This document shows, in pieces, positions 25,122-39,077 of a stretch of 64,000 nucleotides of DNA. A model generated the notes under the pieces. That model was not told where the DNA came from and did no database searches. It saw only the letters and a program-made list of their open reading frames with translations. The stretch comes from Aurantimonas aggregata. GTDB taxonomy: Bacteria > Pseudomonadota > Alphaproteobacteria > Rhizobiales > Rhizobiaceae. A program made the translations under genes and the position numbers. The stretch lies in contig NZ_JAAAMJ010000011.1 in NCBI RefSeq assembly GCF_010500835.1, positions 62,001-126,000 of the forward strand. Reading direction: 5' to 3'. Position 1 is the first letter of the stretch, and each line of letters starts with the position of its first letter.

Positions 25122-25796
25122 ATGGCCGAGCCGATCGACAAGGAATACTACGAGGTCATCGCAAACCGCAGCATTGCGGAGAAGCTCCTCGTCCGCGCCC
25201 GCAACAAGATGCACGCCGACTTCCTTCGCCTCGTGAGGCCGTCCGCGGAAACGACCATACTCGACGTCGGGGTATCGGACGTCCAGGTGAAAGGCGCCAA
25301 CTGGCTCGAGAGTGTCTACGCCTATCCGGCTAAGATCAGCGCCTGCGGCCTCGGCAAAGGCGGCGCGTTCAAGGCTGCCTTCCCCGAGATCAACTATACG
25401 ACCATCGTTCCGAACGAGCGTCTTCCTTATCCCGACAGCGCTTTCGACGTGGTGACGGCGAACGCGGTGCTGGAGCATGTCGGCAGCGTCGCCAACCAGC
25501 GGGCCTTCGTCGCCGAGCTATCCAGAGTGGGACGCCTCGTGTTCCTGACGGTGCCGCACCGCTATTTTCCGATCGAGCACCACACGAGCATTCCCTTCCT
25601 GCATTTCTTCGACCGCAGCTTTGCGCTCGCTTGCACCATCGCGGGCAAGGAGCGCTGGTTGAAGCCGGAGAACCTCATCATGATGTCGCGCGCCCATTTG
25701 CGTTCGCTGGCGCCGGCCAACAGCACGATTGGCTATACCGGGATCGGCCTCGGGCCGTTTTCATCGAACCTGTTTCTTTATTCACAGAATGCGTAA
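25122..25796 (+). CDS. SAM-dependent methyltransferase, class I
   Basis: A 224-residue protein. Motif I is TTILDVGVSDVQVKG (an atypical, shortened glycine loop), followed by LPYPDSAFDVVTANAVLEHV, the post-I and acceptor-helix pattern of methyltransferase type 11. Then comes a C-terminal half with HRYFPIEHHTSIPFLHFFDR. ATG 25122 was chosen because AGGTGA lies six bases upstream; a GTG nine bases earlier is possible. It sits between the GtrB-like gene and a large membrane protein whose start it overlaps by a few bases (25789), so all three are likely one operon. The substrate is unknown; a sugar or a lipid-linked intermediate is plausible. Confidence 0.85.
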   Translation: MAEPIDKEYYEVIANRSIAEKLLVRARNKMHADFLRLVRPSAETTILDVGVSDVQVKGANWLESVYAYPAKISACGLGKGGAFKAAFPEINYTTIVPNERLPYPDSAFDVVTANAVLEHVGSVANQRAFVAELSRVGRLVFLTVPHRYFPIEHHTSIPFLHFFDRSFALACTIAGKERWLKPENLIMMSRAHLRSLAPANSTIGYTGIGLGPFSSNLFLYSQNA

Positions 25797-27816
25797 CATT
25801 CCGGGAGCAATTCGGTCCCTGTCGGAGCGTGGCTGGCTTTCACGCGTTCATCTTGGCGCATGGCGCGGCAGGTGTTGGGCTATTGGCTTCGGCTGCGCCA
25901 GCAGCTTCCTAGTCTACAACATTGTCTATTTATTCTATTCGTCAGTTCCAGGTAATAACAGCGAATATCCGCTAGGTTGGTGGGGCTGGTTCGATCAAGG
26001 CCAGTATCTGACAGCCGCCACCGCTTTCCTGAACGGGGATTTCTCCCCTTCGCAACATTTCTACCCACCGCTCTACCCCTTTCTCGGCTCGTTATTCCTG
26101 CGCCTGAGCGAAAGTCACGCTTTTTATCTGCCGAACCTGGCACTAGCGGTGGGCTATTTTGCCGTGCTGGTCATGCTGTTTGGGCGCTATATCGGCTGGT
26201 GGGGCGCTGCGGCCTGTGGCTTGTCGGGAATGTTTCTCTACGAGCCTTTCCGGCTCCAATGGGTCATCCCTTGGACGACGACGCTGGGCGCGTTCCTCAT
26301 TATCTGTGCGCTCTTCCTGCTCGACCGCTATGTGAGGCGGCACAACCAGGACTCCTGGACAGCAGGCGTAGCAATGACGAACGCTGTGCTTTTCGGCCTC
26401 GTCGTCGGCCTGCAGGCACCACTTCGCCCCGCCGATCTCGCTCTCGTCGCCCCCATCGCAGCGATCTACGCCGTCCTTTTGGTGTACGCCTTGCTGTCGG
26501 CTGACAGAAATGGGCGTCGAGGCGCGCTGGCCGCCATTGTCGGCGGCGCCGCAGGGTTCTTGGTTCCCGTCGGTTTGATGCTGCTGTTCAACTCAGTGAC
26601 CTATGGGTCTATCGCAGGTGGTTATTTCAGCACGGTCACCTCGATCGGGTTCGACCCGCACATACTGCCCGACAGGCTGTTCTCCCATTTGCTCGCATCT
26701 CAGATCTTCTTCGGTGAACAGGATGCCGACTGGCTCAGCGTGGTTCCGCTGGTGTTTGCTGCAACCGTCTTCCTGCCGATTGCTCTGTTCACCGGGCCGA
26801 TCGTCATGCGCGCGGCGGCGGCGGCGGCCTGTGTGCAGTTCGTCATCTATTTCAGTTACTCGGACCTCCTGCCCACGGGGACGTTCCGATACTTCAATAT
26901 TCACTATTTCAAGTGGCTCGCGCCGGTCGCGCTCTGTATTGCGTTGTATTTCGTGCGACAGTCGTTCTCTCGGGATGCCTCGGAAAAGGGACGAGGACGG
27001 ACAGCTGTGGCGGCAGGCCTCTTGCTCGTTCTCGTGGTCAGTAGCGTCGATGCCGGGCAACAGTTGAGGCCCGCCTCGCTCATTGAGCGAGAGGGGCAGC
27101 AGATCACCCTCGATCTTGGTGACGAGAAAATAGATTTCGTTGATTTCGTGGGAGTGGAAGGCGGTTGGACCGATGTCTATTTTCCAGGGTCATCACGTGT
27201 ATTTGGGGATGGCAACCAAGAACTCACGGTTGTCGCCGATTACCGATTCTTGCCCATTAAGAGCGGGACGCGCCTACTATTTTTCAAGCCACTTAACGGA
27301 GGAGGCCTGAAAATTGAGTTTAGCGAAACGATTCCGGTCCCTGACAGGTTCACTTCGGCGAATGTTCGCCCGGTTGATGTTGTATATCGAATGGGCTTCC
27401 CTCTTGGCCAACAGGCGTCACCCGCTCAGATATCTGACGGGTCGCCTGGACAAGACTTGATACTGAGCGGAGAGACGGTTGTCTTCGAGGACTGGTCCGT
27501 CTTCGAAGGGTCGCATCGCTGGAGCGAGGGCGCCGCCAGCCGGGTGATTCTTTACCTGCTATCATCCGAGCCCAATCAATGCCTAAGCATGGACGGCTTT
27601 ACTCTAGGGGCGCAGACGATTTCGGCTTCAGTGGGTGGCGAAGCGGTGTCCGAGACACGCCTTGATGGGCAAGGGACGGTGACCGTTCCCCTCGGGCGGG
27701 CTGCGGGAAAGACGGAGATAGATCTCGCCTTCTCGAATCCGCATGCGCCAAACGAGGCAGATACCCGCAGTCTGGCATTTGCTGTCGAGGCAATGTCGGT
27801 GGCGCCCTGTCCATGA
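25789..27816 (+). CDS. Large multi-pass membrane protein with C-terminal beta domain (GtrC-like glycosyltransferase candidate)
   Basis: A 675-residue protein. Residues 25-430 hold about ten to eleven hydrophobic helices. The first periplasmic loop has GWWGWFDQGQYLTAATAFLN followed by QHFYPPLYPFLGSLFLR, an acidic-residue loop as in GT-C glycosyltransferases. The remaining 240 residues are soluble and beta-rich. The end (WSVFEGSHRWSEG ... LAFAVEAMSV) resembles the end of the methyltransferase encoded at 27919. Position beside GtrA and GtrB-like genes suggests the serotype-specific transferase GtrC, which moves the flipped sugar onto the O-chain in the periplasm. Its DNA contains AT-rich stretches, especially at 25900-26000 and 27100-27420. 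Function is inferred from topology and neighbours. Confidence 0.75.
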   Translation: MRNIPGAIRSLSERGWLSRVHLGAWRGRCWAIGFGCASSFLVYNIVYLFYSSVPGNNSEYPLGWWGWFDQGQYLTAATAFLNGDFSPSQHFYPPLYPFLGSLFLRLSESHAFYLPNLALAVGYFAVLVMLFGRYIGWWGAAACGLSGMFLYEPFRLQWVIPWTTTLGAFLIICALFLLDRYVRRHNQDSWTAGVAMTNAVLFGLVVGLQAPLRPADLALVAPIAAIYAVLLVYALLSADRNGRRGALAAIVGGAAGFLVPVGLMLLFNSVTYGSIAGGYFSTVTSIGFDPHILPDRLFSHLLASQIFFGEQDADWLSVVPLVFAATVFLPIALFTGPIVMRAAAAAACVQFVIYFSYSDLLPTGTFRYFNIHYFKWLAPVALCIALYFVRQSFSRDASEKGRGRTAVAAGLLLVLVVSSVDAGQQLRPASLIEREGQQITLDLGDEKIDFVDFVGVEGGWTDVYFPGSSRVFGDGNQELTVVADYRFLPIKSGTRLLFFKPLNGGGLKIEFSETIPVPDRFTSANVRPVDVVYRMGFPLGQQASPAQISDGSPGQDLILSGETVVFEDWSVFEGSHRWSEGAASRVILYLLSSEPNQCLSMDGFTLGAQTISASVGGEAVSETRLDGQGTVTVPLGRAAGKTEIDLAFSNPHAPNEADTRSLAFAVEAMSVAPCP

Positions 27817-27918
27817 CAGTCATTGACCCTGGATGCGTACTCCCAAGCGTAAACATCCCCTAATTACCGGGCTTCTCGATAATTGGCAGAAGATCAAGCG
27901 CCAGATGAGGAGGTTTTC

Positions 27919-29235
27919 ATGGACGATACCGCTCCACCAGCCGAACAGCTCATTTCGGTCGACGCGTTCTTTGCCGGCATCGACATGGAAATACCCGACA
28001 CGGCGGAGTATCGGCGGCTCTCGGGGGTGATCCTCGACCATCCGCTCGTGAGCCAGATGCAGGCGCTCGATCCGTTTTCCGACGCTTATCGCGACCTGGC
28101 GATGCGGATCTATTTTGACATTCGCGGCGGCGAGCATGCCGACTTCCGGCCGGAGCGAGACGAGAAAAGCGGCGGTGGAGATATCGCCAACGTCTTCTCC
28201 GAGGTCTCGCCCTGGTCGTTCCGGGACACCGGTTTCATCGCCGAGATGCTGTTCAGCTGGGGCCATATCCTCCGGCTCCTGGACATGAACGGCGCGACCG
28301 GGAACCGGGTCCTCGAATATGGGCCCGGCAGCGGGCAGATCCTGCTCACCCTCGCGCGTTCCGGCTGCGAGGCCTATGCGGTCGACATCGACGCGGCGTC
28401 ACTGGAAAGCGTCGCGACGCAAGCCCGGCTGATGGACCTGACTGTCCATACCGAGCGGGCGGTTTTCGGCGAAGGCTTCGAGGGCCAGCGCTTCGACGCC
28501 ATCATCTTCTTCGAGGCCTTCCATCACGCGGCCGACTTCCAGGCGCTCTCCCAGCGGCTGCAGGAGCGGCTGGAGCCGGGCGGCAGGGTGATCTTCTGCG
28601 GCGAGCCGATCGTGCCGCAGGCGGCTGGCTCCGTCCCCTATCCGTGGGGACCCCGGCTCGACGGCCTCTCGTCCTTCTGCATCCGCCGCTTCGGCTGGAT
28701 GGAGCTTGGTTTCACGCGCGCATTCTTCATGGAGATGCTGCGGGCGAACGGCTGGCGGGCGGAACATCACCCATTCCCCGCCTGCCCCCGTGCCGAAGCC
28801 TTCGTCGCGCGGATCATGACCAGCGAAGAGCAGCGGGGGCAATTCGAGATCGACCTGCGCCGCGAGGCACCCGGCGTCTATCTTGCGCCGGAGGAATGGA
28901 ACCACTCGGAGGGCACCCACCGCTGGACCATCGCCCACGGTGCGACGGTTCCGCTCCTGAAACCGCGCGATGCCGTGGTGGACCTCACCTTGACGGTCGC
29001 GAACTACCTGCCGGTCGACAAGCAGGTGCGGATCGCCTGCGGGGATGTGTCTGCCGACACCGTCCTGCATCCCGGCGAGACCCGCGACATCGAGCTTGCC
29101 GGCTGCACCGCCGATCGTCTGGTCGTCGAGGCGGACCTGCACCTCGTGAGCGAAGTGATCCCCGGCTCGGGCGACATGCGACGCCTGGGGATCTCCGTCC
29201 AGCAGCTGGTCTCGGTGCCATCTGACGCCAAGTAG
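27919..29235 (+). CDS. SAM-dependent methyltransferase with C-terminal beta domain
   Basis: A 438-residue protein. After about 110 residues of helical N-terminus comes the methyltransferase core: NRVLEYGPGSGQILLTLARS (motif I), EAYAVDIDAAS, then FDAIIFFEAFHHAADFQAL and LEPGGRVIFCGEPIV. From about residue 310 a separate beta-rich domain follows, with EEWNHSEGTHRWTIAHG and the terminal LGISVQQLVSV. Its start is marked by a strong AGGAGG seven bases before ATG 27919. It lies 102 bp behind the membrane-protein gene and ends convergent with the double glycosyltransferase gene. It probably methylates a sugar residue of the surface polysaccharide. The accessory domain is shared in pattern with its upstream neighbour. 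Confidence 0.85.
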   Translation: MDDTAPPAEQLISVDAFFAGIDMEIPDTAEYRRLSGVILDHPLVSQMQALDPFSDAYRDLAMRIYFDIRGGEHADFRPERDEKSGGGDIANVFSEVSPWSFRDTGFIAEMLFSWGHILRLLDMNGATGNRVLEYGPGSGQILLTLARSGCEAYAVDIDAASLESVATQARLMDLTVHTERAVFGEGFEGQRFDAIIFFEAFHHAADFQALSQRLQERLEPGGRVIFCGEPIVPQAAGSVPYPWGPRLDGLSSFCIRRFGWMELGFTRAFFMEMLRANGWRAEHHPFPACPRAEAFVARIMTSEEQRGQFEIDLRREAPGVYLAPEEWNHSEGTHRWTIAHGATVPLLKPRDAVVDLTLTVANYLPVDKQVRIACGDVSADTVLHPGETRDIELAGCTADRLVVEADLHLVSEVIPGSGDMRRLGISVQQLVSVPSDAK

Positions 29236-29283: not shown

Positions 29284-32184
29284 TCAGAGCGTAACGCGCA
29301 ACCCGCCATCCCACCAGCCGCAGCCCTCCTGCACCACGGTGATGTCGAGGCTCATTCCCTGCCCGAAGCGCGCCTCGGGGGGGATCTGGACGGCGAGGAC
29401 GGCCGTATCCCCGGAGATCAGCACGTACGGGATCAGCGAACGCGAGACGCTGTCGGCGAGGGCCGCACCGTCGCTGGTGCGCAGGCGTGCGGCCACCCTG
29501 ATGCCGAACCGGCCGGTATCATCGCCGGCGCTCGACCATACATGACCGGAGAGGTTCGTCACCGCGACGACGATCCGCAGGCCGTCGCCACCCGGGCCGG
29601 GCGCCGCTTCCTCGACGATCTCGAGAGCGAACCGGCGGTCGTCCTCGCCGATCTCCCGCGACATCGCGGTCACGCCGAGATCGGTGAAGGGCCGATAGGC
29701 GGCGCCCTCCGGCGGCTCGTAGGTCAGATACCAGTTGCCATCGAGGACGACCGCCTCCAGCTCGGCAGCGCTCTCGGCCCAGCCGGGCCATTTCGCCCGG
29801 GATGCGCCCGCCGAGACGTCCCCCACAGCACGGCGCTCGAGAAACCGCCGGAGCGCCTGGTGCAGCGCCGTGGGCGATCCGACCTCGAAGAAGTCCGCTT
29901 GACCGAAACCGCCGGCGACCTCGCGGAAGACTGGGATGTCGCTGGCGATCACCGGCTTGCCGAAATGCGCCGCCTCGACGATCGGCAGGCCGAAGCCTTC
30001 GGCGTGGGATGCCGCAACCAAGGCATCGGCCTCGCCATAAAGCCGAACTAGCGCGGCATCGTCGACGCCCTTGTGCCAGACCAGGCGCCGACCGAGTTCC
30101 GGGCTTTCGCGGATGCGGCGCAGCAGCGGCTCGACGCCCCAGCCGGCCTTGCCGACGATGACCAGGCGGGCATCGGAGCCCTCGGCCCAAAGTTGCTCGA
30201 AGGCGTCGAGGGCCACCCGGTATCCCTTGCGCGGCTCGAGCGTGCCGACCATCAGGAACACGGGCGGTCCGTAGGCCCTCGCGCCTGCCGGGGCCGGGGT
30301 GGCCGCGGCATCGGCGGCGAAGTCGGCGCCCAGCCGCCAGTAGCCGATCTTCATCGGATGCGGGTAGTCGATGGCGCGCAGCAGCGCGTGGAACTCGTCC
30401 GCGACGGCGCGGGAGATGCAGACGAAGCCGGTGGAAAAGCGGAGGGCCAACCGAATCCAGCTGGCGAAAGCCGGCGGCATGCCGCTGTCGCAGAAGGCCG
30501 GAGTCCTCAGCGGCACCAGATCGTAGAGGCAGGTGATGATTTCGGCGCCGCGAAGTCTGGCGGAGAGGAAGAAGGGGGCCTGCCCCTTCTCGAATGTCCA
30601 GGAGCTGTCGAGCATCAGGATCGTGTCCCCCGGACGAGGACGCAGACGCTCGGCTACGGCCTTGTCGGGCGGAAAATCGATGATGCCACGGGCGTCGTAC
30701 CAGCCGTCCGGCCCGTCACAATAGGACAGGACGCGTTGAGGCTCGGTCGCGGTCGACTCAGCGAACATCCGGTGGCAGATCTTGTTGACCACCCGCTGGA
30801 TGCCGGTCTTCCGGTCGGACTGCATGGTCGAAGTGGCATCGACGATCAGGCGGCCCGGCTCGGCGACCGGCTCGGCGAGGGCGAAAATCATCGCCGCGAG
30901 ATCGATGTCCGCTGCAGTCTCTCCCAAGCGTTCCGCACGAGGCTCCCGTGTTTGCTCCACCGCCTTGGCGGACAAGGCCTCGAGACGCTCGCGCAGGGCA
31001 GCGATGGCAATGTCGGCCGAACGCGCCCAGGTGAAACGCTGCGCGCGACGGGATGCCGTCCCGATGATTTCCGCCCGGAACGGAGCGTCGGTCAGGATCC
31101 GCGTCATCACGGCCGCGAGCTCATCGGCCGACGAGGGGTCGAACAGGAGACGCTCGTCGCCGATGACTTCGAGCAACGCCCCGGCCCGGGACGCGGCGAC
31201 CGGCGTGCCGCAGACCATGGCTTCCAGCGCCGTCAGGCCAAAGCCTTCCATGAAGGACGGCTGCACCAGCAGGCTGGCGCCGCGATAGAGCCGGACGAGC
31301 TCGGCCTCAGAGACATGCCGATGGCAGATGATCTGGGACAGGCTGAGCCCCCTCGCCTGCCAGCGCTGCTTGATCTCATCCAGCGCGGCATCGGGATAGT
31401 CGCCGGCGAGAACCATGCGGAAACCGTCGCGCAGCGAAGCGTCGAGCCGGGCAAATGCCTCCGGCAGCAGGCCGACATTCTTCCGCCAGTCCAAGCCGCC
31501 AACATAGAGTATGTACGCTACACGCGGGGCGTCGCCAGCGACCAATTCGTCTTCCGCAAGGGCCTGGCTGAAGACGTCAGAGATACCCGCCGAGATGTTC
31601 ACTGCCGGAACGTTGCCAAGTAGCTCCAGGAGTTCCGAGCGCGAGAACTCGGATATGCACAAATTCAGATCATAGGGCCGATGCGCTTCGAGACGCCGGG
31701 CGTAGGCCGCGGCGTGTGCAGGGGCAGACAAATAGCGGTCGGGAAAGCGACGGGGGATCGCGTCGTAAAAGATCGACGCGACAGCCATCGCGCTACCCGG
31801 CTGTTTCAGCAGCGGGACTGCGGGATCGAACATCCCCTCGAACGGACTGGTCGAGATGGCGAAATCCGGGGCCAGCGCCTCGACATGGCGGGCAAGCGCT
31901 GCCTCGCTGAGGCGCCGCCGCCCGGTGTAGCCATCGAGGACCTCGCCATTGTCGCGAGCGCTGTGCCAGACGTGGATGTTCTCCGGCCGGAACCAGGCCC
32001 GCACCGCCTCGCGCGCCGAGATCGCCGCGACCGGCATCCCGGCGTTGAAGGAGATCCGCATCTCGACGTCGCGATGATTCTCGGCGATCGCCTTGATCAG
32101 CTCGATGGCGTAGCGGCCGATGCCACGGCGATTGCTGGCAGTCTGTAGGCACTGCCCGTCGAACCAGAGACGCATGTCAGCCAT
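29284..32184 (-). CDS. Two-domain family 4 glycosyltransferase with C-terminal beta domain
   Basis: A 966-residue enzyme. The first GT-B domain is at about residues 1-410 (LWFDGQCLQTASNRRGIGRY, ILYVGGLDWRKNVGLLPEAF, MEGFGLTALEAMVCGTPVAA). The second is at about 445-800 (DATSTMQSDRKTGIQRVV, FLMVGTLEPRKGYRVALDAF, AEGFGLPIVEAAHFGKPVIA). Each has its own EX7E pair. The last 150 residues are beta-rich (VAVTNLSGHVWSSAGDDTG). Tandem transferases of this kind, such as WbdA, polymerise homopolysaccharide repeats with two alternating linkages. The ATG at 32184 overlaps the stop of the upstream methyltransferase by eight bases, so it is coupled with the export genes. It probably extends a D-rhamnan or mannan chain. 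Confidence 0.9.
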   Translation of the reverse strand: MADMRLWFDGQCLQTASNRRGIGRYAIELIKAIAENHRDVEMRISFNAGMPVAAISAREAVRAWFRPENIHVWHSARDNGEVLDGYTGRRRLSEAALARHVEALAPDFAISTSPFEGMFDPAVPLLKQPGSAMAVASIFYDAIPRRFPDRYLSAPAHAAAYARRLEAHRPYDLNLCISEFSRSELLELLGNVPAVNISAGISDVFSQALAEDELVAGDAPRVAYILYVGGLDWRKNVGLLPEAFARLDASLRDGFRMVLAGDYPDAALDEIKQRWQARGLSLSQIICHRHVSEAELVRLYRGASLLVQPSFMEGFGLTALEAMVCGTPVAASRAGALLEVIGDERLLFDPSSADELAAVMTRILTDAPFRAEIIGTASRRAQRFTWARSADIAIAALRERLEALSAKAVEQTREPRAERLGETAADIDLAAMIFALAEPVAEPGRLIVDATSTMQSDRKTGIQRVVNKICHRMFAESTATEPQRVLSYCDGPDGWYDARGIIDFPPDKAVAERLRPRPGDTILMLDSSWTFEKGQAPFFLSARLRGAEIITCLYDLVPLRTPAFCDSGMPPAFASWIRLALRFSTGFVCISRAVADEFHALLRAIDYPHPMKIGYWRLGADFAADAAATPAPAGARAYGPPVFLMVGTLEPRKGYRVALDAFEQLWAEGSDARLVIVGKAGWGVEPLLRRIRESPELGRRLVWHKGVDDAALVRLYGEADALVAASHAEGFGLPIVEAAHFGKPVIASDIPVFREVAGGFGQADFFEVGSPTALHQALRRFLERRAVGDVSAGASRAKWPGWAESAAELEAVVLDGNWYLTYEPPEGAAYRPFTDLGVTAMSREIGEDDRRFALEIVEEAAPGPGGDGLRIVVAVTNLSGHVWSSAGDDTGRFGIRVAARLRTSDGAALADSVSRSLIPYVLISGDTAVLAVQIPPEARFGQGMSLDITVVQEGCGWWDGGLRVTL

Positions 32185-33583
32185 CCGCCTTGTTCGTGGC
32201 GGGCCTGTCGCCCAGCAGTGCCGCCCATTTCGCCTGCACAGCAGGCTCAGGGTCGAGGTACCACTCCCGGCCCGTCAGAACGTCGAGTTCCGGCATGGCG
32301 GCCCGCTGTTCGGCAGCAAGGCGGAAAAGCCGCGCCTGGAGCGAAGGCACCAGAGCCGTCAGCCGTATCGCGGCGCTCTTGGCACGGGGCTTGTCGCGGA
32401 GATACCCGGCTCCGGCTCGCGCCAACCGCCCCGCGACGCGCCTCGGTCGCGAGCCCGGCTTGAGCAGTAGCCAAGCCGAGGAGCCTTGTCGCAATTTACG
32501 CAGCAACCGCCCCATAGCGTCCGACCGGCCGGATTGCCTCCCTAACAGCTCGCGCAGCCCGGCAACCTCAGATTCAAGATGGTTGATCCTTGCGGACATC
32601 TCATTACTGACTTGCCACAATAGCTGCCTTTCATAGAGCTTGAATGCCGTACCAATTTCCTCGCGCGCCCGCTTGAGTTGACTGGAAACACATTGATCTA
32701 CTTGAGCAGAAATTTCTGACTGAAAAACGTCGATTTTTTCCGATAATCCTCTACTGATCTCCAAATCAATGTCCCTTCTTACTTTATCGACTCTGGAGAT
32801 GATGTTTTCATCAAATTTCGATACAGCACGGCCGTAACTGATGCCGACCTCACGGGAGAAGCTCTCCTTGAAAAAATTTTCTACCGATTCGTCAGCCGGC
32901 TTTTGAGCGACGAGCGCATAATCTGGACTGATCCCTTCCAGTACGATGGACAGTCCAACATCTTCCCGAGCCTTGAAACTATCCAAATCCATCTCAGCTT
33001 GAAGTCTTAAAATAATATGTCGACTATACCCATTGTATACTGCAAGAAACTCCATTAGATCTGGAGGTATCGGACGATTATGGGTGGGATCTAGATGAAA
33101 CGTTAGCGTCGATACTCGTAAGTTTTCTGGATTCGGCGTCTCCAAGATCAGCAGTCCGCCAGGCGTAAGGACACGGAATGTCTCTTCCACGACTTTCCTA
33201 AGGTCGTCGAAACTGAGGTGCTCTGCGATGTGGAACCCTGATACGACGCTTTGGCTGACATCAGGCAGAGTGCTCAGGAATTCCAGTGCGTTACCGTACA
33301 CAGCTGGAAGGTCACGCTCATAGCATGCCGCGAGCATGCCCTCGTCTAAATCAACGCCCTGGGCCTGGAAGCCCGCATCCTGCAATACTTCAAGCCATTC
33401 GCCGCGACCACATCCGAGATCGACTGCCTTGCCAGCTAGTCCAGCCTCATGAAGGGCGCCGAGGAAAGGTCTGTATACCTGAAGTCGGCCCTTAATTAGC
33501 TGGCGCGAACCTCGGAACCTTTCTTCAAAGGACCTATAAAATATATCATCGTTTTTCGGATCGGAAGTTGTAATATCACTCAT
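32177..33583 (-). CDS. Coiled-coil methyltransferase, probable chain terminator (WbdD-like without kinase)
   Basis: A 468-residue protein. The methyltransferase domain is at about residues 30-220: VDLGCGRGEWLEVLQDAGF (motif I), GVDLDEGML, SGFHIAEHLSFDDLR, VLTPGGLLILETPNPEN. A long coiled-coil follows at about 250-355 (SRVDKVRRDIDLEISRG to HLESEVAGLRELLG), then a basic C-terminal part. WbdD of E. coli O8/O9a has this order but includes a kinase between methyltransferase and coiled-coil, and uses the coiled-coil as a length ruler. No kinase motif is seen here. The gene overlaps wzt by eight bases. Residues 1 to about 330 are encoded by DNA far poorer in GC than its surroundings; the C-terminal 140 are not. 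Function is inferred from architecture and location. Confidence 0.86.
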   Translation of the reverse strand: MSDITTSDPKNDDIFYRSFEERFRGSRQLIKGRLQVYRPFLGALHEAGLAGKAVDLGCGRGEWLEVLQDAGFQAQGVDLDEGMLAACYERDLPAVYGNALEFLSTLPDVSQSVVSGFHIAEHLSFDDLRKVVEETFRVLTPGGLLILETPNPENLRVSTLTFHLDPTHNRPIPPDLMEFLAVYNGYSRHIILRLQAEMDLDSFKAREDVGLSIVLEGISPDYALVAQKPADESVENFFKESFSREVGISYGRAVSKFDENIISRVDKVRRDIDLEISRGLSEKIDVFQSEISAQVDQCVSSQLKRAREEIGTAFKLYERQLLWQVSNEMSARINHLESEVAGLRELLGRQSGRSDAMGRLLRKLRQGSSAWLLLKPGSRPRRVAGRLARAGAGYLRDKPRAKSAAIRLTALVPSLQARLFRLAAEQRAAMPELDVLTGREWYLDPEPAVQAKWAALLGDRPATNKADG

Positions 33584-34814
33584 GATATTCGATATTTATC
33601 CCAGCCTTAATGGCAGTTGTACCTATAAAATAATGTTCGCTTACATTAACCACGTCAAACACTACAAGGTTATCTTGCCATTCGTAATTCTGATCAAGGT
33701 GGCTGCTATTTTTCGTCAAAGCCGGGGTAATTGAGTAGGAGCCAGGTCCAAGACTACAAACAAACCGTGTCTCAATATTTGCCGTGGCTCCGGGCTTCAA
33801 AGCTGCGATTGTTTGTCCTGTGTGCCAAGTATTTGTTCCCCAGATCACATGTCCCGTACGATCTCGGATCATGCAGCCGAAGATAAGCTGTGGCACCTCC
33901 TGATGAACCCTTGCCTTCAGCTTCAAAACAAGCGCTTGCCCCACGATCGCGGTTGATACCGGCTCATCGGTTTCAGCATCGAAAAGACCCACATTCTCTG
34001 CCGTGACCTCACCCGTTCCGCTTTTGGTGTACAGCCAGCCAGCCTGATCGCGGCGCTGCTCGATTGTCAGCTTGCTGTTTTCCTTGGCTGCAACCAGTGC
34101 GTTGTAGAAATCCACCACTTCGTCGGGCGCGCCGTCCTTCAGTACCTTGCCCTTATCGAGGAGGATGACGCGGTCGGCCAGCGCCCGCACGTCGCCCATC
34201 GCGTGCGACACGATGACGATCGAGGTGCCCTGGTCCCGGAACTTGCGGATGCGGTCGAAGCTCTTGTGCTGGAAGTAGCTGTCGCCCACCGACAGCACCT
34301 CGTCGACGATCAGGAGATCGGGCCGCCGGGCCGTGGCGAGGGCGAAGGCGAGGCGCGCCTGCATGCCGCTCGAATACACCCGGAACGGCTGGTCGAAGAA
34401 TTCCCCGATCTCGGTGAAGCTCTCGATCTGCGGCATCAGAGCCGCCAGCTCGGCCTGGGAAATGCCCATCAGGCCGCCGGCATGAAAGGCATTCCCGCGG
34501 CCGGTGAACTCCGGATTGAAGCCGAGGCCGAGCTCGAGGATCGCGCTGATCGATCCGGCGACGGCCACGGAACCGGTACTGGGCCGCACCGTGCCGGTGA
34601 TCAGCTTCAGCAGCGACGACTTGCCGGCGCCGTTCTGGCCGATCAGTGCGACAGACTCGCCCCGCCGCACCTGGAAGCTGATGTCGCTGACGGCCCAGAA
34701 CTCCGCAGACGGCTTGATCCCAGCGCCGAACCAGTTGGCGAAACGCTGCAGATTGGAGGCGTAGGTCGTGTAGCGCTTGCCGACATGCACGACGTCCAGA
34801 AGAATGTCGCTCAT
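33576..34814 (-). CDS. wzt: Polysaccharide ABC exporter, ATP-binding subunit with C-terminal carbohydrate-recognition domain
   Basis: A 412-residue cytoplasmic ATPase. Walker A is GQNGAGKSSLLKL (near residue 60). The family-specific ILELGLGFNPEFTGRGN follows, then the signature YSSGMQARLAFALA, Walker B DLLIVDEVLSVGD and the switch His in VIVSHAMGDVRA. From about residue 260 a Wzt C-terminal domain begins (VGLFDAETDEPVSTAI, FGCMIRDRTGHVIWGTNTW, PGSYSITPAL), which in O8/O9a systems binds the capped O-chain end. The ATG at 34814 overlaps the wzm stop (ATGA). The C-terminal domain is encoded by AT-rich DNA that continues into the next gene. The start is well supported by the start of the conserved domain. 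Confidence 0.94.
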   Translation of the reverse strand: MSDILLDVVHVGKRYTTYASNLQRFANWFGAGIKPSAEFWAVSDISFQVRRGESVALIGQNGAGKSSLLKLITGTVRPSTGSVAVAGSISAILELGLGFNPEFTGRGNAFHAGGLMGISQAELAALMPQIESFTEIGEFFDQPFRVYSSGMQARLAFALATARRPDLLIVDEVLSVGDSYFQHKSFDRIRKFRDQGTSIVIVSHAMGDVRALADRVILLDKGKVLKDGAPDEVVDFYNALVAAKENSKLTIEQRRDQAGWLYTKSGTGEVTAENVGLFDAETDEPVSTAIVGQALVLKLKARVHQEVPQLIFGCMIRDRTGHVIWGTNTWHTGQTIAALKPGATANIETRFVCSLGPGSYSITPALTKNSSHLDQNYEWQDNLVVFDVVNVSEHYFIGTTAIKAGINIEYHE

Positions 34815-35596
34815 AGCGCGTCCACCAGTTCGGGGCTGGCGCGGCGAAACACCACGAAGGACAGGAGCACCGCAACGGCGGCGGCCACCGCCGGATAGAC
34901 CAGGCTGGCCGGATCCGGCCAGAGATCGTGCAGCAAGGCGTTCTGATAGATCTGCACCAACGGCACCATCGGATTGAGTTCGGCCACCCAGCGCAGATTC
35001 TCGGGGATGACGTTGGCAGGGTAGACGACCGGGGTCATCCAGAACCACAGCTGGAGAACGACGGACATCACCTGCGCGACGTCACGCGAAAAGACGTTGA
35101 GCGTGCCGCACAGGACGCCGATGCCGAAGGCGAAGGCCGAGATCAGCATGATCCCAAGCGGCAGGACCAGCACCGCCGGACCCGGGAAATGCCCGAGAAA
35201 GGCGAAAACCACCAGGATGGCGGCGATCAGCAGCACGTGATTGACCAGGGCGCTGCCCCACACGATGACCGGCAGGCAGAGACGCGGGAAGGCGATCTTC
35301 TTCATCGCGCCAGCCTGTTCCAGGAAGATCGTGATCGAGCGGTTGAGGATCTCGGCGAACAGGCTCCAGGCCGCCATGCCCGAGAGCAGATAGATCGCGT
35401 AGGCCGACTCGTTGTCGGTGTTCGGGAGACGCGCGCCGAGGACTTCGGACAGGACGACGGCGAAGATCAGGGCCTGCGCCAACGGATGCAGCACGAACCA
35501 CAGCGCGCCGAGCTTGGAGCGCGCGAACCGACCCTTCAGGTCGCTGCGGATCGATGACGCCACGAAGTAGCGGTAACGCCAGAGACTGGTGAGCAT
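34811..35596 (-). CDS. wzm: Polysaccharide ABC exporter, permease subunit
   Basis: A 261-residue inner-membrane protein with six hydrophobic helices, of the ABC-2 type used for O-antigen export. Typical segments are RYRYFVASSIRSDLKGRFAR at the cytoplasmic N-terminus, SKLGALWFVLHPLAQALIF, MKKIAFPRLCLPVIVWGSAL (coupling region) and MTPVVYPANVIPENLRWVAE, LNPMVPLVQIYQNAL near the C-terminus. With Wzt it flips the finished, lipid-linked polysaccharide to the periplasm. Its stop overlaps the wzt start. Confidence 0.94.
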   Translation of the reverse strand: MLTSLWRYRYFVASSIRSDLKGRFARSKLGALWFVLHPLAQALIFAVVLSEVLGARLPNTDNESAYAIYLLSGMAAWSLFAEILNRSITIFLEQAGAMKKIAFPRLCLPVIVWGSALVNHVLLIAAILVVFAFLGHFPGPAVLVLPLGIMLISAFAFGIGVLCGTLNVFSRDVAQVMSVVLQLWFWMTPVVYPANVIPENLRWVAELNPMVPLVQIYQNALLHDLWPDPASLVYPAVAAAVAVLLSFVVFRRASPELVDAL

Positions 35597-35705: not shown

Positions 35706-36665
35706 TCAGCCGTGCTCGCGCCAGAAATCGAGGACGTCGCGCAGCGTGTCCTCGAAGGCGATCTCCGGCCGCCAGCCCAGGTCGACGGCGACCTTCTGCG
35801 CGTTGCCGACCGCCCGGGGGACCAGATTGGGTCGCAGGCGTTCCGGGTCGACGCGGATTTCGACCTCCATCCCCGACAGTGCGATCAGCGTCGCGAGGAT
35901 GTCGCCGATCCGCCACGCCTTGCCGGAGGCGAGATTGTAGACGCTGGACGGGCCCGTCGGGGCGGCCGGGTCGAGGGCCGCGGCGGCGTAGGCCCGCACC
36001 ACGTCCCGGGCGTCGAGAAAGTCCCGATCAACGTCGAGATTGCCCACCGAGATGACCGGTGCCTGGTCGCCTGCCGTGATCGCGGCGATCTGGCGCGCGA
36101 AGGCCGACACGACATAGGTATCAGCCTGCCCCGGCGCGGTGTGGTTGAACGGCCGGAACCGGATGGCCTTGAGGCCGTCATGCGCCATCTGCCCGACCAT
36201 CATGTCGGCTGCCGCCTTGGTCGCGCCGTAGACGCTCGTCGGCTGCAACGGTGCGCCCTCGCTGATCGGCCCCTCCACCGACAGAAACGCGTCGCCGTAG
36301 GCTTCCGAGCTGCCGACATTGATGAAGCGTGCCTCTGGCGCGTGCTGCATCACCGCCTCGGCGAGGTTCATCGCGCCATAGAGGTTGACCTCCCAGGCCC
36401 GGCGCGGCGAACGATGCGCTTCCGCCGGTGCGGCGATCGCCGCCAGATGCACGACCGCGGTCGGCCGGGCCGCCTGCACCGCCCGATCGGCAGCCTCGCG
36501 GTCGCTGATATCGAAACCTTCGCCCTCGGCGGCGCCAAGGATCGCCACCGACGATGCGCCGCCGCCGTGGATTGCCTCGAGATGGCGCACGAGCAGCGTT
36601 CCGACGAACCCGCCGGCGCCGGTGACCAGGACTCGATGCTGGGGATCCATCACGTTTTTGCTCAT
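35706..36665 (-). CDS. rmd: GDP-6-deoxy-D-mannose (GDP-D-rhamnose) reductase
   Basis: A 319-residue extended SDR. The cofactor motif is VLVTGAGGFVGTLLVRHL, then VVHLAAIAAPAEAH, NLYGAMNLAEAV, catalytic Ser in NVGSSEAYG and active site YGATKAAADMM (Tyr, Lys). FRPFNHTAPGQ is the substrate-loop signature of Rmd/RfbD-type enzymes. It reduces GDP-4-keto-6-deoxymannose to GDP-D-rhamnose with NAD(P)H. It directly follows gmd, whose product it uses. The ATG at 36665 was preferred over a TTG nine bases earlier. GDP-L-fucose synthase is the main alternative, but that enzyme has a different size and C-terminal domain. Confidence 0.88.
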   Translation of the reverse strand: MSKNVMDPQHRVLVTGAGGFVGTLLVRHLEAIHGGGASSVAILGAAEGEGFDISDREAADRAVQAARPTAVVHLAAIAAPAEAHRSPRRAWEVNLYGAMNLAEAVMQHAPEARFINVGSSEAYGDAFLSVEGPISEGAPLQPTSVYGATKAAADMMVGQMAHDGLKAIRFRPFNHTAPGQADTYVVSAFARQIAAITAGDQAPVISVGNLDVDRDFLDARDVVRAYAAAALDPAAPTGPSSVYNLASGKAWRIGDILATLIALSGMEVEIRVDPERLRPNLVPRAVGNAQKVAVDLGWRPEIAFEDTLRDVLDFWREHG

Positions 36666-36705
36666 TTTCGGCAATTGCTGGTAGCGGCGACGCCCGGCGC
36701 TGCTC

Positions 36706-37722
<1,017 letters not shown>

Positions 37723-37781: not shown

Positions 37782-39077
37782 GGAGACCTCGAAAAACCTC
37801 CCCCTTCGGCTCGTTTTGTGATTCCATCCTTATGAGCGAGAGCGGGAGGATGGCGTGCGGGGACAGCCAGGGTTCTGGGACGTAGACGAGCGGTATGTCC
37901 GGCTGAGCGAGGCCGGCGATCCGCTGGAGAAGCTGAACGCGATCGTGCCCTGGGAGATCTTCCGCAAGCCGCTATCGAAGGCTCTGAAGCGGTCGGATGG
38001 GGCCAAGGGCGGCAGACCGCCCTACGACGCGGTGCTGATGTTCAAGATCCTTGTCCTGCAAGCGCTCTACAACCTCTCCGACGACCAGGCCGAGTTCCAG
38101 ATCCAGGACCGGCTTTCCTTCACGCGCTTTCTCGGTCTCGGCATTGCCGAGAAGGTGCCGGACGCCAAGACGATCTGGCTGTTCCGCGAGCATCTGGCCG
38201 ACGCCGGCGCGATCGGGAACCTCTTCGCCCGTTTCGACAGGCATCTGAACAAGGCCGGTTACCTGGCCATGGGTGGGCAGATCGTGGATGCCACGATCGT
38301 CGCCGCGCCAAAGCAGCGCAACACCGAAGAGGAAAAGACCGCCATCAAGGCCGGCGAGGTGCCCGAGGCCTGGAAGGACAAGCCGGCCAAGCTTCGCCAG
38401 AAGGATTGCGATGCCCGCTGGACGGTAAAGTTCTCCAAGGCCAAGCCGGCGGCCGAGGGAAAGCCGCAGCACATCGACATTGCGGTGCCAGCCTTCGGCT
38501 ACAAGAACCATGCAGCGATCGACCGCCCTCATGGCTTCATCCGCGGATGGTCGGCGACGAGCGCGTCAGCCTATGACGGCGCACAACTCTCCACCGTCGT
38601 CGACCGCTTCAACACCGGATCGAAGGTGTGGGCCGACACCGCCTACCGGTCCGCGAAGAACGAGGAGTGGCTGGAGAAGAACGGCTACGTCTCGGACATC
38701 CACCGCAGGAAGCCGAAGGGGCGGCCGATGAGCGAACGGACATCCCGCGCCAATGGCCGTCGGTCGGCAATCCGCTCGATGGTCGAGCACGTCTTCGCCC
38801 GCCAGAAGGGGCCGATGAGGCTGTTCATCCGCACCATCGGCATCGTGCGCGCCGAGGTGAAGATCGGCATGGCGAATCTTGCCTACAATCTCACGCGCTT
38901 CGTCTGGCACGAGGGGAGAGGTGTGCCCGCATGACAGCGAAAGCGCTATCAGGGCAGCGTGCCGGCCTTCGGTAGAAACCCAGACGCACAGACTTCCGAG
39001 CGTCGGTGCCGTGCGGGCCGCGGCACATGATCAAAGCCGATCTCACGCGCCTGAAACGGCCGTTCTTCGAGGTGTCC
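37782..39077 (+). mobile_element. IS5-family insertion sequence, about 1.3 kb
   Basis: Terminal inverted repeats are GGAGACCTCGAAAAAC (37782-37797) and, on the opposite strand, GGACACCTCGAAGAAC (39062-39077), with two mismatches in 16. AGCT flanks both ends (37778-37781 and 39078-39081) and may be the 4-bp target duplication, though AGCT is itself a palindrome, so it could be counted as repeat. One transposase gene fills the element. It is inserted between gmd and the glycosyltransferase/manC genes, in the opposite orientation to them. Confidence 0.82.
37855..38934 (+). CDS. IS5-family transposase
   Basis: A 359-residue DDE transposase. The N-terminal domain (DUF772 type) has GGRPPYDAVLMFKILVLQAL, YNLSDDQAEFQIQDRLSFTR and FLGL. 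The catalytic residues are in GGQIVDATIVAAPKQRN (first Asp), KVWADTAYRSAKNEEWL (second Asp) and SMVEHVFARQKGPM (Glu). Length and motifs are intact, so it could be active. The start is a GTG at 37855 preceded by GGGAGGATG. It would cut and join the inverted repeats described for the element. Confidence 0.93.
   Translation: MRGQPGFWDVDERYVRLSEAGDPLEKLNAIVPWEIFRKPLSKALKRSDGAKGGRPPYDAVLMFKILVLQALYNLSDDQAEFQIQDRLSFTRFLGLGIAEKVPDAKTIWLFREHLADAGAIGNLFARFDRHLNKAGYLAMGGQIVDATIVAAPKQRNTEEEKTAIKAGEVPEAWKDKPAKLRQKDCDARWTVKFSKAKPAAEGKPQHIDIAVPAFGYKNHAAIDRPHGFIRGWSATSASAYDGAQLSTVVDRFNTGSKVWADTAYRSAKNEEWLEKNGYVSDIHRRKPKGRPMSERTSRANGRRSAIRSMVEHVFARQKGPMRLFIRTIGIVRAEVKIGMANLAYNLTRFVWHEGRGVPA

What the first reader, a model, noticed from the sequence alone, without database searches (positions are those of the whole stretch)
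32560..34000. GC dip that spans exactly the Wzt recognition domain and the front of the capping enzyme
Counted directly, bases 33601-33660 have 23 G/C of 60 and 33001-33060 have 19 of 60, against 42 of 60 at 34621-34680 within the same wzt gene. In O8/O9a systems the Wzt C-terminal domain must recognise the cap made by WbdD. The dip covers both partner modules but not the ATPase domain or the methyltransferase tail, as if a matched recognition cassette had been swapped in by recombination.
Basis: partly seen in the sequence, partly recalled or inferred. Interest (0 to 1): 0.68.

Follow-up and report, generated by a model that had tools for sequence, protein, structure and literature searches.

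The report
Swapped O-antigen capping and recognition cassette
In this bacterium a stretch of foreign-looking DNA has replaced both the enzyme part that caps a surface sugar chain and the exporter part that reads the cap, while the exporter's motor and the enzyme's docking tail stayed native, which suggests that cap chemistry can be exchanged like a plug-in.

Summary
The GC dip is real: 32564-34120 has 48.5% GC in a 66% window, and third codon positions fall from 0.90 to 0.47-0.50. It covers the Wzt C-terminal domain (CTD), the whole methyltransferase domain and most of the coiled coil, but neither the Wzt ATPase nor a non-catalytic C-terminal tail. Three same-genus species keep the flanks (gmd-rmd-wzm-Wzt ATPase; tail-glycosyltransferase) but carry different middles: E. 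coli O8-type methyltransferase in the window, FkbM methyltransferases in G001 and G003, O9a-type WbdD with O9a-type CTD in G005. CTD/ATPase distance ratios are 28-45 among window, G001 and G003, against at most 3.6 in the other 43 same-head pairs. Replacement between two conserved intragenic anchors is well supported. 'Matched recognition cassette' is clear in G005 but only partly shown in the window: its CTD belongs to the local FkbM-associated clade, not with sampled O8-type CTDs, and topology tests alone do not reject shared descent of window, G001 and G003 CTDs. Likely function: a D-rhamnan O antigen capped by O-methylation, read by a CTD that keeps most of the Aquifex methyl pocket. Related recombination is described in Pseudomonas syringae. 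New variant of a known kind.

The parts
36706..37713 (-). gmd, GDP-mannose 4,6-dehydratase; conserved left anchor region
   Evidence: Pfam GDP_Man_Dehyd; 97-98% identical in G001, G003, G005
35706..36674 (-). rmd-like GDP-6-deoxyhexose reductase (predicted GDP-D-rhamnose synthesis)
   Evidence: GDP_Man_Dehyd/Epimerase families; 77-90% identical in G001, G003, G005; the product is inferred from pathway knowledge
34811..35596 (-). wzm, O-antigen ABC transporter permease
   Evidence: ABC2_membrane; 98% G001, 92% G003, 95% over the first 182 residues in G005
33576..34817 (-). wzt, 413 aa: ATPase part GC-rich and native, C-terminal part replaced
   Evidence: ABC_tran 44-174, Wzt_C 265-400; best split about residue 262 against G001 and G003, about 179 against G005
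34016..34120 (-). upper crossover zone at the ATPase/CTD hinge
   Evidence: GC edge 34120; similarity to G001 and G003 fades over codons 248-268
33576..34082 (-). Wzt carbohydrate-binding CTD inside the low-GC segment
   Evidence: GC3 0.50; related to the solved ABC-transporter CTD 8dky, E 1.7e-12
32564..34120 (.). low-GC segment (replaced cassette), 1557 bp
32888..33583 (-). class I methyltransferase head of the capping enzyme, O8-WbdD type
   Evidence: Methyltransf_11 at 54-147; 53% identical to the E. coli IAI1 (O8) enzyme over residues 15-230
32492..32836 (-). predicted long coiled-coil helix, residues 250-364
   Evidence: AlphaFold2 model, helix 250-364, block pLDDT 50-78 over most of it
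32483..32566 (-). lower crossover zone at the coil/tail junction
   Evidence: GC edge 32564; codon similarity to G005 resumes at residue 367, base 32485
32177..32485 (-). conserved helical C-terminal tail of the capping enzyme (predicted docking module)
   Evidence: shared with G001, G003, G005 whose heads belong to other families; no Pfam match
29284..32184 (-). two-domain GT4 glycosyltransferase (predicted D-rhamnan polymerase); right anchor region
   Evidence: Glycos_transf_1, 2 stretches; 73-86% identical in G001, G003, G005

Best explanation
The locus makes an ABC-transporter-exported O polysaccharide, predicted to be a D-rhamnan (gmd, rmd, wzm, wzt, terminator, two-domain GT4). A contiguous DNA segment from a lower-GC source replaced the middle of the locus by homologous exchange. 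One crossover lies near the Wzt ATPase/CTD hinge and the other near the coil/tail junction of the terminator. The segment brought in a Wzt CTD, an O8-WbdD-type methyltransferase head and its coiled-coil ruler. Kept were the transporter motor and the terminator tail, which probably docks to the native polymerase and the membrane. In the working system the methyltransferase would cap the chain end with an O-methyl group, the coil would set chain length, and the Wzt CTD would read the methyl cap and license export. Shown here: foreign composition, conserved flanks, different middles in sister species, breakpoints near domain junctions. Inferred: the polymer, the methyl cap, docking by the tail, and import in one event (the single-event part about 60%).
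For: GC3 is even across the segment (0.497, 0.478, 0.472) and differs from both sides (0.90; 0.76-0.83). The window and three same-genus loci share gmd-rmd-wzm-Wzt ATPase and tail-GT but have heads of different Pfam families: methyltransferase, FkbM, FkbM, methyltransferase-kinase. Fourfold-site identity window-G001 is 103 of 130 in the ATPase part against 16 of 45 in the CTD, Fisher p 1.9e-7; window-G003 83 of 125 against 19 of 48, p 1.8e-3. Best-split chi2 is 290, 176 and 348 against permutation maxima 27, 19 and 27 for G001, G003 and G005. CTD/ATPase distance ratios: window-G001 44, window-G003 28, G001-G003 45, against 0.8-3.6 in the other 43 of 44 same-head pairs. The capping enzyme is 45% identical to the E. 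coli IAI1 (O8) methyltransferase over residues 15-291. By alignment to 8dku, the Aquifex methyl-pocket residues Leu300, Thr346, Ala348 and Trp362 (named in PMC9445017, abstract and passages; chain index taken as paper number plus one because the named residues then fit) correspond to Met, Thr, Ala and Trp in the window. In E. coli O9a WbdD the C-terminal region recruits the polymerase WbdA (PMC3482155, passages).
Against: The AU test does not reject a window+G001+G003 CTD clade (p 0.21; p 0.36), so topology alone gives no proof. The nearest relatives differ between the two parts: the CTD is closest to Rhizobium/same-genus CTDs (49-55% identity), the head to Smithella and beta/gammaproteobacterial O8-type enzymes (up to 59%). 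This allows two separate imports. No donor above 60% identity was found for either part. The G003 CTD is also AT-rich while its FkbM head is not, so CTDs may move alone. One of the 6 pairs with differing heads (L051-L108) has a ratio of only 3.2, so a head change need not come with a CTD change.
Confidence: 0.78

Rival explanations
1. Two or more separate exchanges: the Wzt CTD was swapped from a Rhizobiaceae-type allele pool, and the terminator head was replaced on another occasion from an O8-type source.
For: The CTD clusters with FkbM-associated CTDs of the genus, Rhizobium and Peteryoungia (100/99 support). Holding it with the 11 Massilia/Pseudoduganella/Polaromonas O8-type CTDs is rejected (p 8.7e-10), as is holding it with the E. 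coli O8 CTD (p 1.3e-30). G003 shows an AT-rich CTD (GC3 0.45) beside a GC-rich FkbM head (0.80), so CTDs can move alone.
Against: CTD, head and coil have nearly equal GC3 and form one low-GC block with genes that overlap by 8 bases.
Confidence: 0.3
2. No import: the CTD and head diverged in place under fast, perhaps phage-driven, selection, and local composition drifted.
For: CTDs diverge somewhat faster than ATPase parts in most control pairs, and the CTD topology does not significantly conflict with the ATPase topology.
Against: 43 of 44 same-head pairs show CTD/ATPase ratios of 0.8-3.6; the focus pairs show 28-45. Fourfold sites are strongly diverged too. Heads are of different Pfam families (FkbM, Methyltransf_11-type, methyltransferase-kinase), which in-place divergence between such close species can hardly make.
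Confidence: 0.05
3. The dip reflects protein composition (coiled coil, beta-sandwich) and not history.
For: The coil has low GC1 and GC2 (0.49, 0.34).
Against: The drop is mainly in GC3, and the globular methyltransferase has GC1 0.65 yet GC3 0.48. In Massilia and Pseudoduganella relatives the same domain has GC3 up to 0.92.
Confidence: 0.03
4. Assembly chimera or contamination at this place.
For: The assembly has 95 contigs.
Against: Both junctions lie inside intact reading frames. G005 shows an analogous low-GC middle between the same flanks on a 4.29-Mb contig. The assembly is listed as 100% complete with 0.02 contamination.
Confidence: 0.03

Closest known systems
E. coli O8 Wzm/Wzt-WbdD (methyl-capped polymannan; here the IAI1 locus, whose wzm and wzt are annotated O8 family)
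   Same: Order wzm-wzt-methyltransferase-glycosyltransferase; methyltransferase head 45% identical over residues 15-291; Wzt 48% identical over nearly full length, CTD 41%
   Different: Polymer predicted to be D-rhamnan, not mannan; the window tail gave no blastp match to the O8 enzyme; chimeric GC structure
E. coli O9/O9a WbdD methyltransferase-kinase and its Wzt CTD
   Same: The sister-species locus G005 carries this type: cap E 3e-79 to WbdD structures, CTD E 1e-42 to 2r5o
   Different: The window itself has no kinase domain match and an O8/Aquifex-type CTD
Aquifex aeolicus Wzm/Wzt O antigen transporter (PMC9445017, abstract and passages; structure 8dku, linked to Aquifex by that paper's subject and recall)
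   Same: Wzt similar over residues 14-405; three of four methyl-pocket residues (Thr, Ala, Trp) kept, Leu300 is Met in the window
   Different: Cap chemistry of the window is not known
Pseudomonas CPA/A-band D-rhamnan locus and the P. syringae TET operon (wzm-wzt-wbdD)
   Same: gmd/rmd, wzm, wzt, terminator; localized recombination of this operon is described (PMC12608077, abstract and passages, citing Jayaraman 2020, which was not held)
   Different: The passages describe recombination of operon alleles and of ~20 kb regions; intragenic breakpoints at the ATPase/CTD hinge and coil/tail junction were not in the passages seen

Membership tests
O8-type WbdD chain terminator | class I methyltransferase head without kinase domain | tested here: met
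   Only methyltransferase-type families in Pfam; 53% identity to the E. coli IAI1 (O8) enzyme over residues 15-230
O8-type WbdD chain terminator | extended coiled coil between head and C-terminal region | tested here: met
   Met as a prediction only: helix 250-364; oligomer not tested, block pLDDT 50-78 over most of it
O8-type WbdD chain terminator | C-terminal membrane/polymerase docking region | tested here: inconclusive
   Conserved helical tail with a motif resembling SxSWR; no blastp match of the tail to the two E. coli enzymes; docking not testable here
O8-type WbdD chain terminator | methylates the non-reducing chain end | not testable with these tools
   Needs enzyme assay or LPS analysis
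O9a-type WbdD | kinase domain after the methyltransferase | tested here: not met
   No kinase family in the window protein; present in G005
Wzt with carbohydrate-binding CTD | ABC ATPase fused to Wzt_C | tested here: met
   ABC_tran and Wzt_C over cut-off
Methyl-cap-reading Wzt CTD (Aquifex type) | hydrophobic methyl pocket (Leu300, Thr346, Ala348, Trp362) with stacking Trp362 | tested here: inconclusive
   Met, Thr, Ala, Trp at these positions: the Trp and two more kept, Leu replaced by Met; by alignment only, binding not tested
D-rhamnan (CPA-like) locus | gmd and rmd with wzm/wzt and GT4 enzymes | tested here: met
   the sugar itself was not tested

The most novel reading that the evidence does not exclude
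Cap chemistry in this genus is a plug-in serotype. Reader domain plus capping head plus ruler move together between two fixed anchors (transporter motor; polymerase-docking tail), so that O8-like methyl, O9a-like methylphosphate and FkbM-type caps alternate on one unchanged D-rhamnan backbone, probably under phage or tailocin pressure.
Probability: 0.4. Interest if true: 0.7.

Novelty: new variant of a known kind. Interest (0 to 1): 0.52.

Why it matters
Chain termination and export of capped O antigens depend on a match between the capping enzyme and the Wzt CTD, as shown by others for E. coli O8 and O9a (a 2005 paper title saying so was seen in the reference list of PMC3482155; the rest is recalled). 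Here sister species provide natural domain swaps with crossover points near the hinge and near the coil/tail junction. They indicate which parts may travel together (reader, head, ruler) and which stay with the transporter and polymerase (ATPase, tail). This makes the modular model directly testable and suggests that the cap, not only the repeat unit, varies between closely related bacteria.

Tried and rejected
Donor search: the methyltransferase head was searched in 367 class genomes (4 with a match including the window, best other 51%), the full capping enzyme in 150 relatives, GTDB contigs (20 loci) and plasmids. The CTD was searched in 297 order genomes, 398 phylum genomes and plasmids. 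No close donor was found.

Co-inheritance of CTD type and head type across the phylum: changes of head type number 5 on the ATPase tree and 4 on the CTD tree (quick trees, 30 labelled of 37 rows), so no strong general pairing signal. One CTD clade for all O8-type heads is rejected (p 2e-6). My first test of the window with Massilia-type CTDs (p 1.5e-4) included L032, which does not belong to that clade in the free tree; I repeated it with the 11 rows that do (p 8.7e-10).

Flanking repeats around the cassette: only short, imperfect, chance-like repeats; no sign of a mobile element at the junctions in that scan.

Structure search of the model listed general methyltransferases in its best 50 rows, best 3dli. 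It added nothing on the tail.

Naming the organism: the 16S search in the own assembly found none. From the small-genome members of the family I guess Rhizobiaceae, perhaps Aureimonas; this is recalled, not a result.

Rows dropped: G005 CTD left out of later CTD trees (end branch 10); L099 left out of ATPase trees (truncated ATPase in our copy) and; 10 of the 35 earlier CTD rows and more were thinned for (25 rows); G005 wzm left out of the codon comparisons because it is interrupted. The first rpoB comparison used wrong frames and was redone.
Full report
OBSERVATION. The low-GC segment is 32564-34120, 1557 bp at 48.5% GC, score 106.5 against 19.0 for the next best segment in the window. The genes of interest are on the minus strand: gmd, rmd, wzm, wzt, a 468-aa capping enzyme and a 966-aa glycosyltransferase with two GT4 stretches. 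In codon terms GC3 is 0.85-0.90 for gmd, rmd, wzm and the Wzt ATPase part. It is 0.50, 0.48 and 0.47 for the Wzt CTD, the methyltransferase head and the coil. It is 0.76 for the tail and 0.83 for the glycosyltransferase. GC1 and GC2 change less, so the dip is mainly a synonymous-site signal.

ANATOMY. Wzt has ABC_tran at residues 44-174 and Wzt_C at 265-400. The capping enzyme has its best methyltransferase match at residues 54-147, a predicted helix from 250 to 364 and a helical tail at 383-456 (mean pLDDT 71.7, tail blocks 32-69, so the tail fold is uncertain). The dip contains the entire catalytic head and most of the coil (to residue ~340). What lies outside is a tail without any Pfam match, not a methyltransferase tail.

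SISTER LOCI. Eight genomes of the genus were available, the window's own included; all 8 have ATPase matches. Apart from the window, four have a Wzt over 60% identical to it: G001, G003, G007, and G005 for the ATPase part only. The other three were not looked at further. In G001, G003 and G005 gmd is 97-98%, rmd 77-90%, wzm 92-98% (G005 over its first 182 residues) and the glycosyltransferase 73-86% identical to the window. Between these anchors the heads differ. The window has a class I methyltransferase. G001 and G003 have FkbM domains. G005 has a methyltransferase plus kinase that matches E. coli WbdD structures at E 3e-79. All four end in the same kind of tail, 51-75% identical to the window. 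The tail search over 394 family genomes gave 11 with a match, the window included. Only these four scored above 100 bits; the other seven were below 30 bits. G007 has Wzt plus a short FkbM enzyme, no match to this tail, and other glycosyltransferases.

BREAKPOINTS. Window Wzt is about 95% identical to G001 and G003 up to residue ~250 and about 50% after it. Against G005 it is about 95% identical to residue ~180 and only 19% identical in the aligned CTD. The best split is about residue 262 for G001 and G003 and 179 for G005; chi2 290, 176 and 348 against permutation maxima 27, 19 and 27. Codon similarity to G005 resumes at capping-enzyme residue 367. Fourfold-site matches window-G001 are 103 of 130 in the ATPase part and 16 of 45 in the CTD (p 1.9e-7); window-G003 83 of 125 and 19 of 48 (p 1.8e-3). 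As background, a 2.5-kb stretch elsewhere in the window is 87% identical in G001, and an rpoB stretch is 96.0% (G001), 95.0% (G003) and 88.7% (G005) identical.

TREES. On ATPase residues 1-176 the window, G001, G003 and G005 form a clade (100/99), 0.04-0.07 from the window, with G007 at 0.59. On the CTD the window, G001, G003 and G007 form a clade (100/99), but each is about 1.6-1.7 from the window. With Rhizobium and Peteryoungia plasmid loci added, the window CTD is as near to Rhizobium sp. CB3090 (1.86) as to G001 (1.96), though ATPase distances are about 0.6 and 0.04. Among 50 pairs with ATPase distance below 0.35, 44 have the same head type. Of these, 43 have a CTD/ATPase ratio of 0.8-3.6 and one (G001-G003) has 45. 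The 6 pairs with differing heads have 44 (window-G001), 28 (window-G003), 10.5, 11.0, 9.2 and 3.2. These pairs are not independent, being drawn from few clades. Against my reading: holding window+G001+G003 together on the CTD is not rejected (p 0.21; p 0.36). The case rests on branch lengths, fourfold-site divergence, GC3 and heads of different families, not on topology.

MATCHED OR NOT. In G005 both parts are O9a-type: the CTD is 46% identical to that of E. coli HS (annotated O9 family) against 29% for the next best of the set compared, and the cap enzyme is a WbdD. In the window the head is O8-type (53% to the E. coli IAI1 enzyme, O8 locus, over residues 15-230; 45% over 15-291). The CTD is nearest to FkbM-partnered CTDs: 54% G003, 51% G001, 49% G007, and 55% Rhizobium sp. 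CB3090. Holding it with the 11 Massilia-group O8-type CTDs is rejected (p 8.7e-10), and with the E. coli O8 CTD as well (p 1.3e-30). FkbM heads occur in G001, G003, G007 and in the three examined Rhizobium loci and Peteryoungia, so FkbM is probably the ancestral head here (inference). The two Rhizobium wzt genes and that of Peteryoungia have GC3 0.50-0.62, similar to the window's CTD, so a Rhizobiaceae-like source for the CTD is plausible but not shown.

FUNCTION. By alignment to 8dku, pocket residues Leu300, Thr346, Ala348 and Trp362 of the Aquifex CTD (PMC9445017, abstract and passages) correspond to Met, Thr, Ala, Trp in the window and, for G001, to Leu, Ala, Ala, Trp. In G003 and G007 I read Leu and Met, Ser, Ala, Trp by eye from sequences. 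The G005 CTD alignment to the same kind of chain stops short of the Trp position; by eye its sequence has no Trp there. This fits a methyl-cap reader in the window and a different reader in G005. gmd and rmd suggest D-rhamnose. In E. coli the O8 enzyme is a simple methyltransferase and the C-terminal region of O9a WbdD recruits the polymerase (PMC3482155, passages); the coil acts as a length ruler (PMC11231755, abstract and passages). E. coli O8 and O9 show the same layout at greater depth: eight ATPase bins with 13-24 of 30 identical, later bins with 1-9 of 30, and a 34% identical C-terminal stretch of 113 columns behind heads that match only weakly (22%, E 0.026).

PRIOR ART. Searches of the open library returned no listed paper that I could see describing intragenic exchange of Wzt CTD plus terminator head; I saw only listings and, for five papers, abstracts or passages. 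Localized recombination of the wzm-wzt-wbdD operon in P. syringae D-rhamnan loci is described in PMC12608077 (passages), citing Jayaraman 2020, which was not held. Hence a new variant of a known kind.

VERDICT. The dip marks a real replaced segment spanning the cap reader, the capping head and most of its ruler. The swap idea stands; 'exactly' and 'methyltransferase tail' do not; 'matched' is clear in G005 and open in the window.

Noticed in passing
L066:10236-11477 (minus strand): The wzm of G005 is interrupted by a 413-aa transposase-like ORF (IS256-like by eye, no family search), so its O-antigen exporter is probably broken.
   Followed up: partly
L064:6607-7470: G001 carries an extra FkbM-like gene between wzt and the main FkbM terminator.
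   Followed up: no
window 37855-38934: IS5-family transposase next to gmd at the edge of this gene group.
   Followed up: no
window 25500-28000: A second, shallower GC low (0.54-0.60) beside a further methyltransferase gene at 27883-29235, which has a 77% relative in G003.
   Followed up: no
L107 and L035: G940 (FkbM head) and a Burkholderiaceae bacterium (O8-type head) have close ATPase parts (0.29) but CTDs 3.2 apart: a possible second case of the same swap.
   Followed up: no
L137: Rhizobium jaguaris plasmid: gmd, rmd, FkbM enzyme and glycosyltransferase in a row, with no wzm or wzt match in the stretch fetched.
   Followed up: no
G005 and G007: Near-identical in an rpoB stretch (98.4%) yet with different terminators, CTDs and glycosyltransferases at this locus.
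   Followed up: partly
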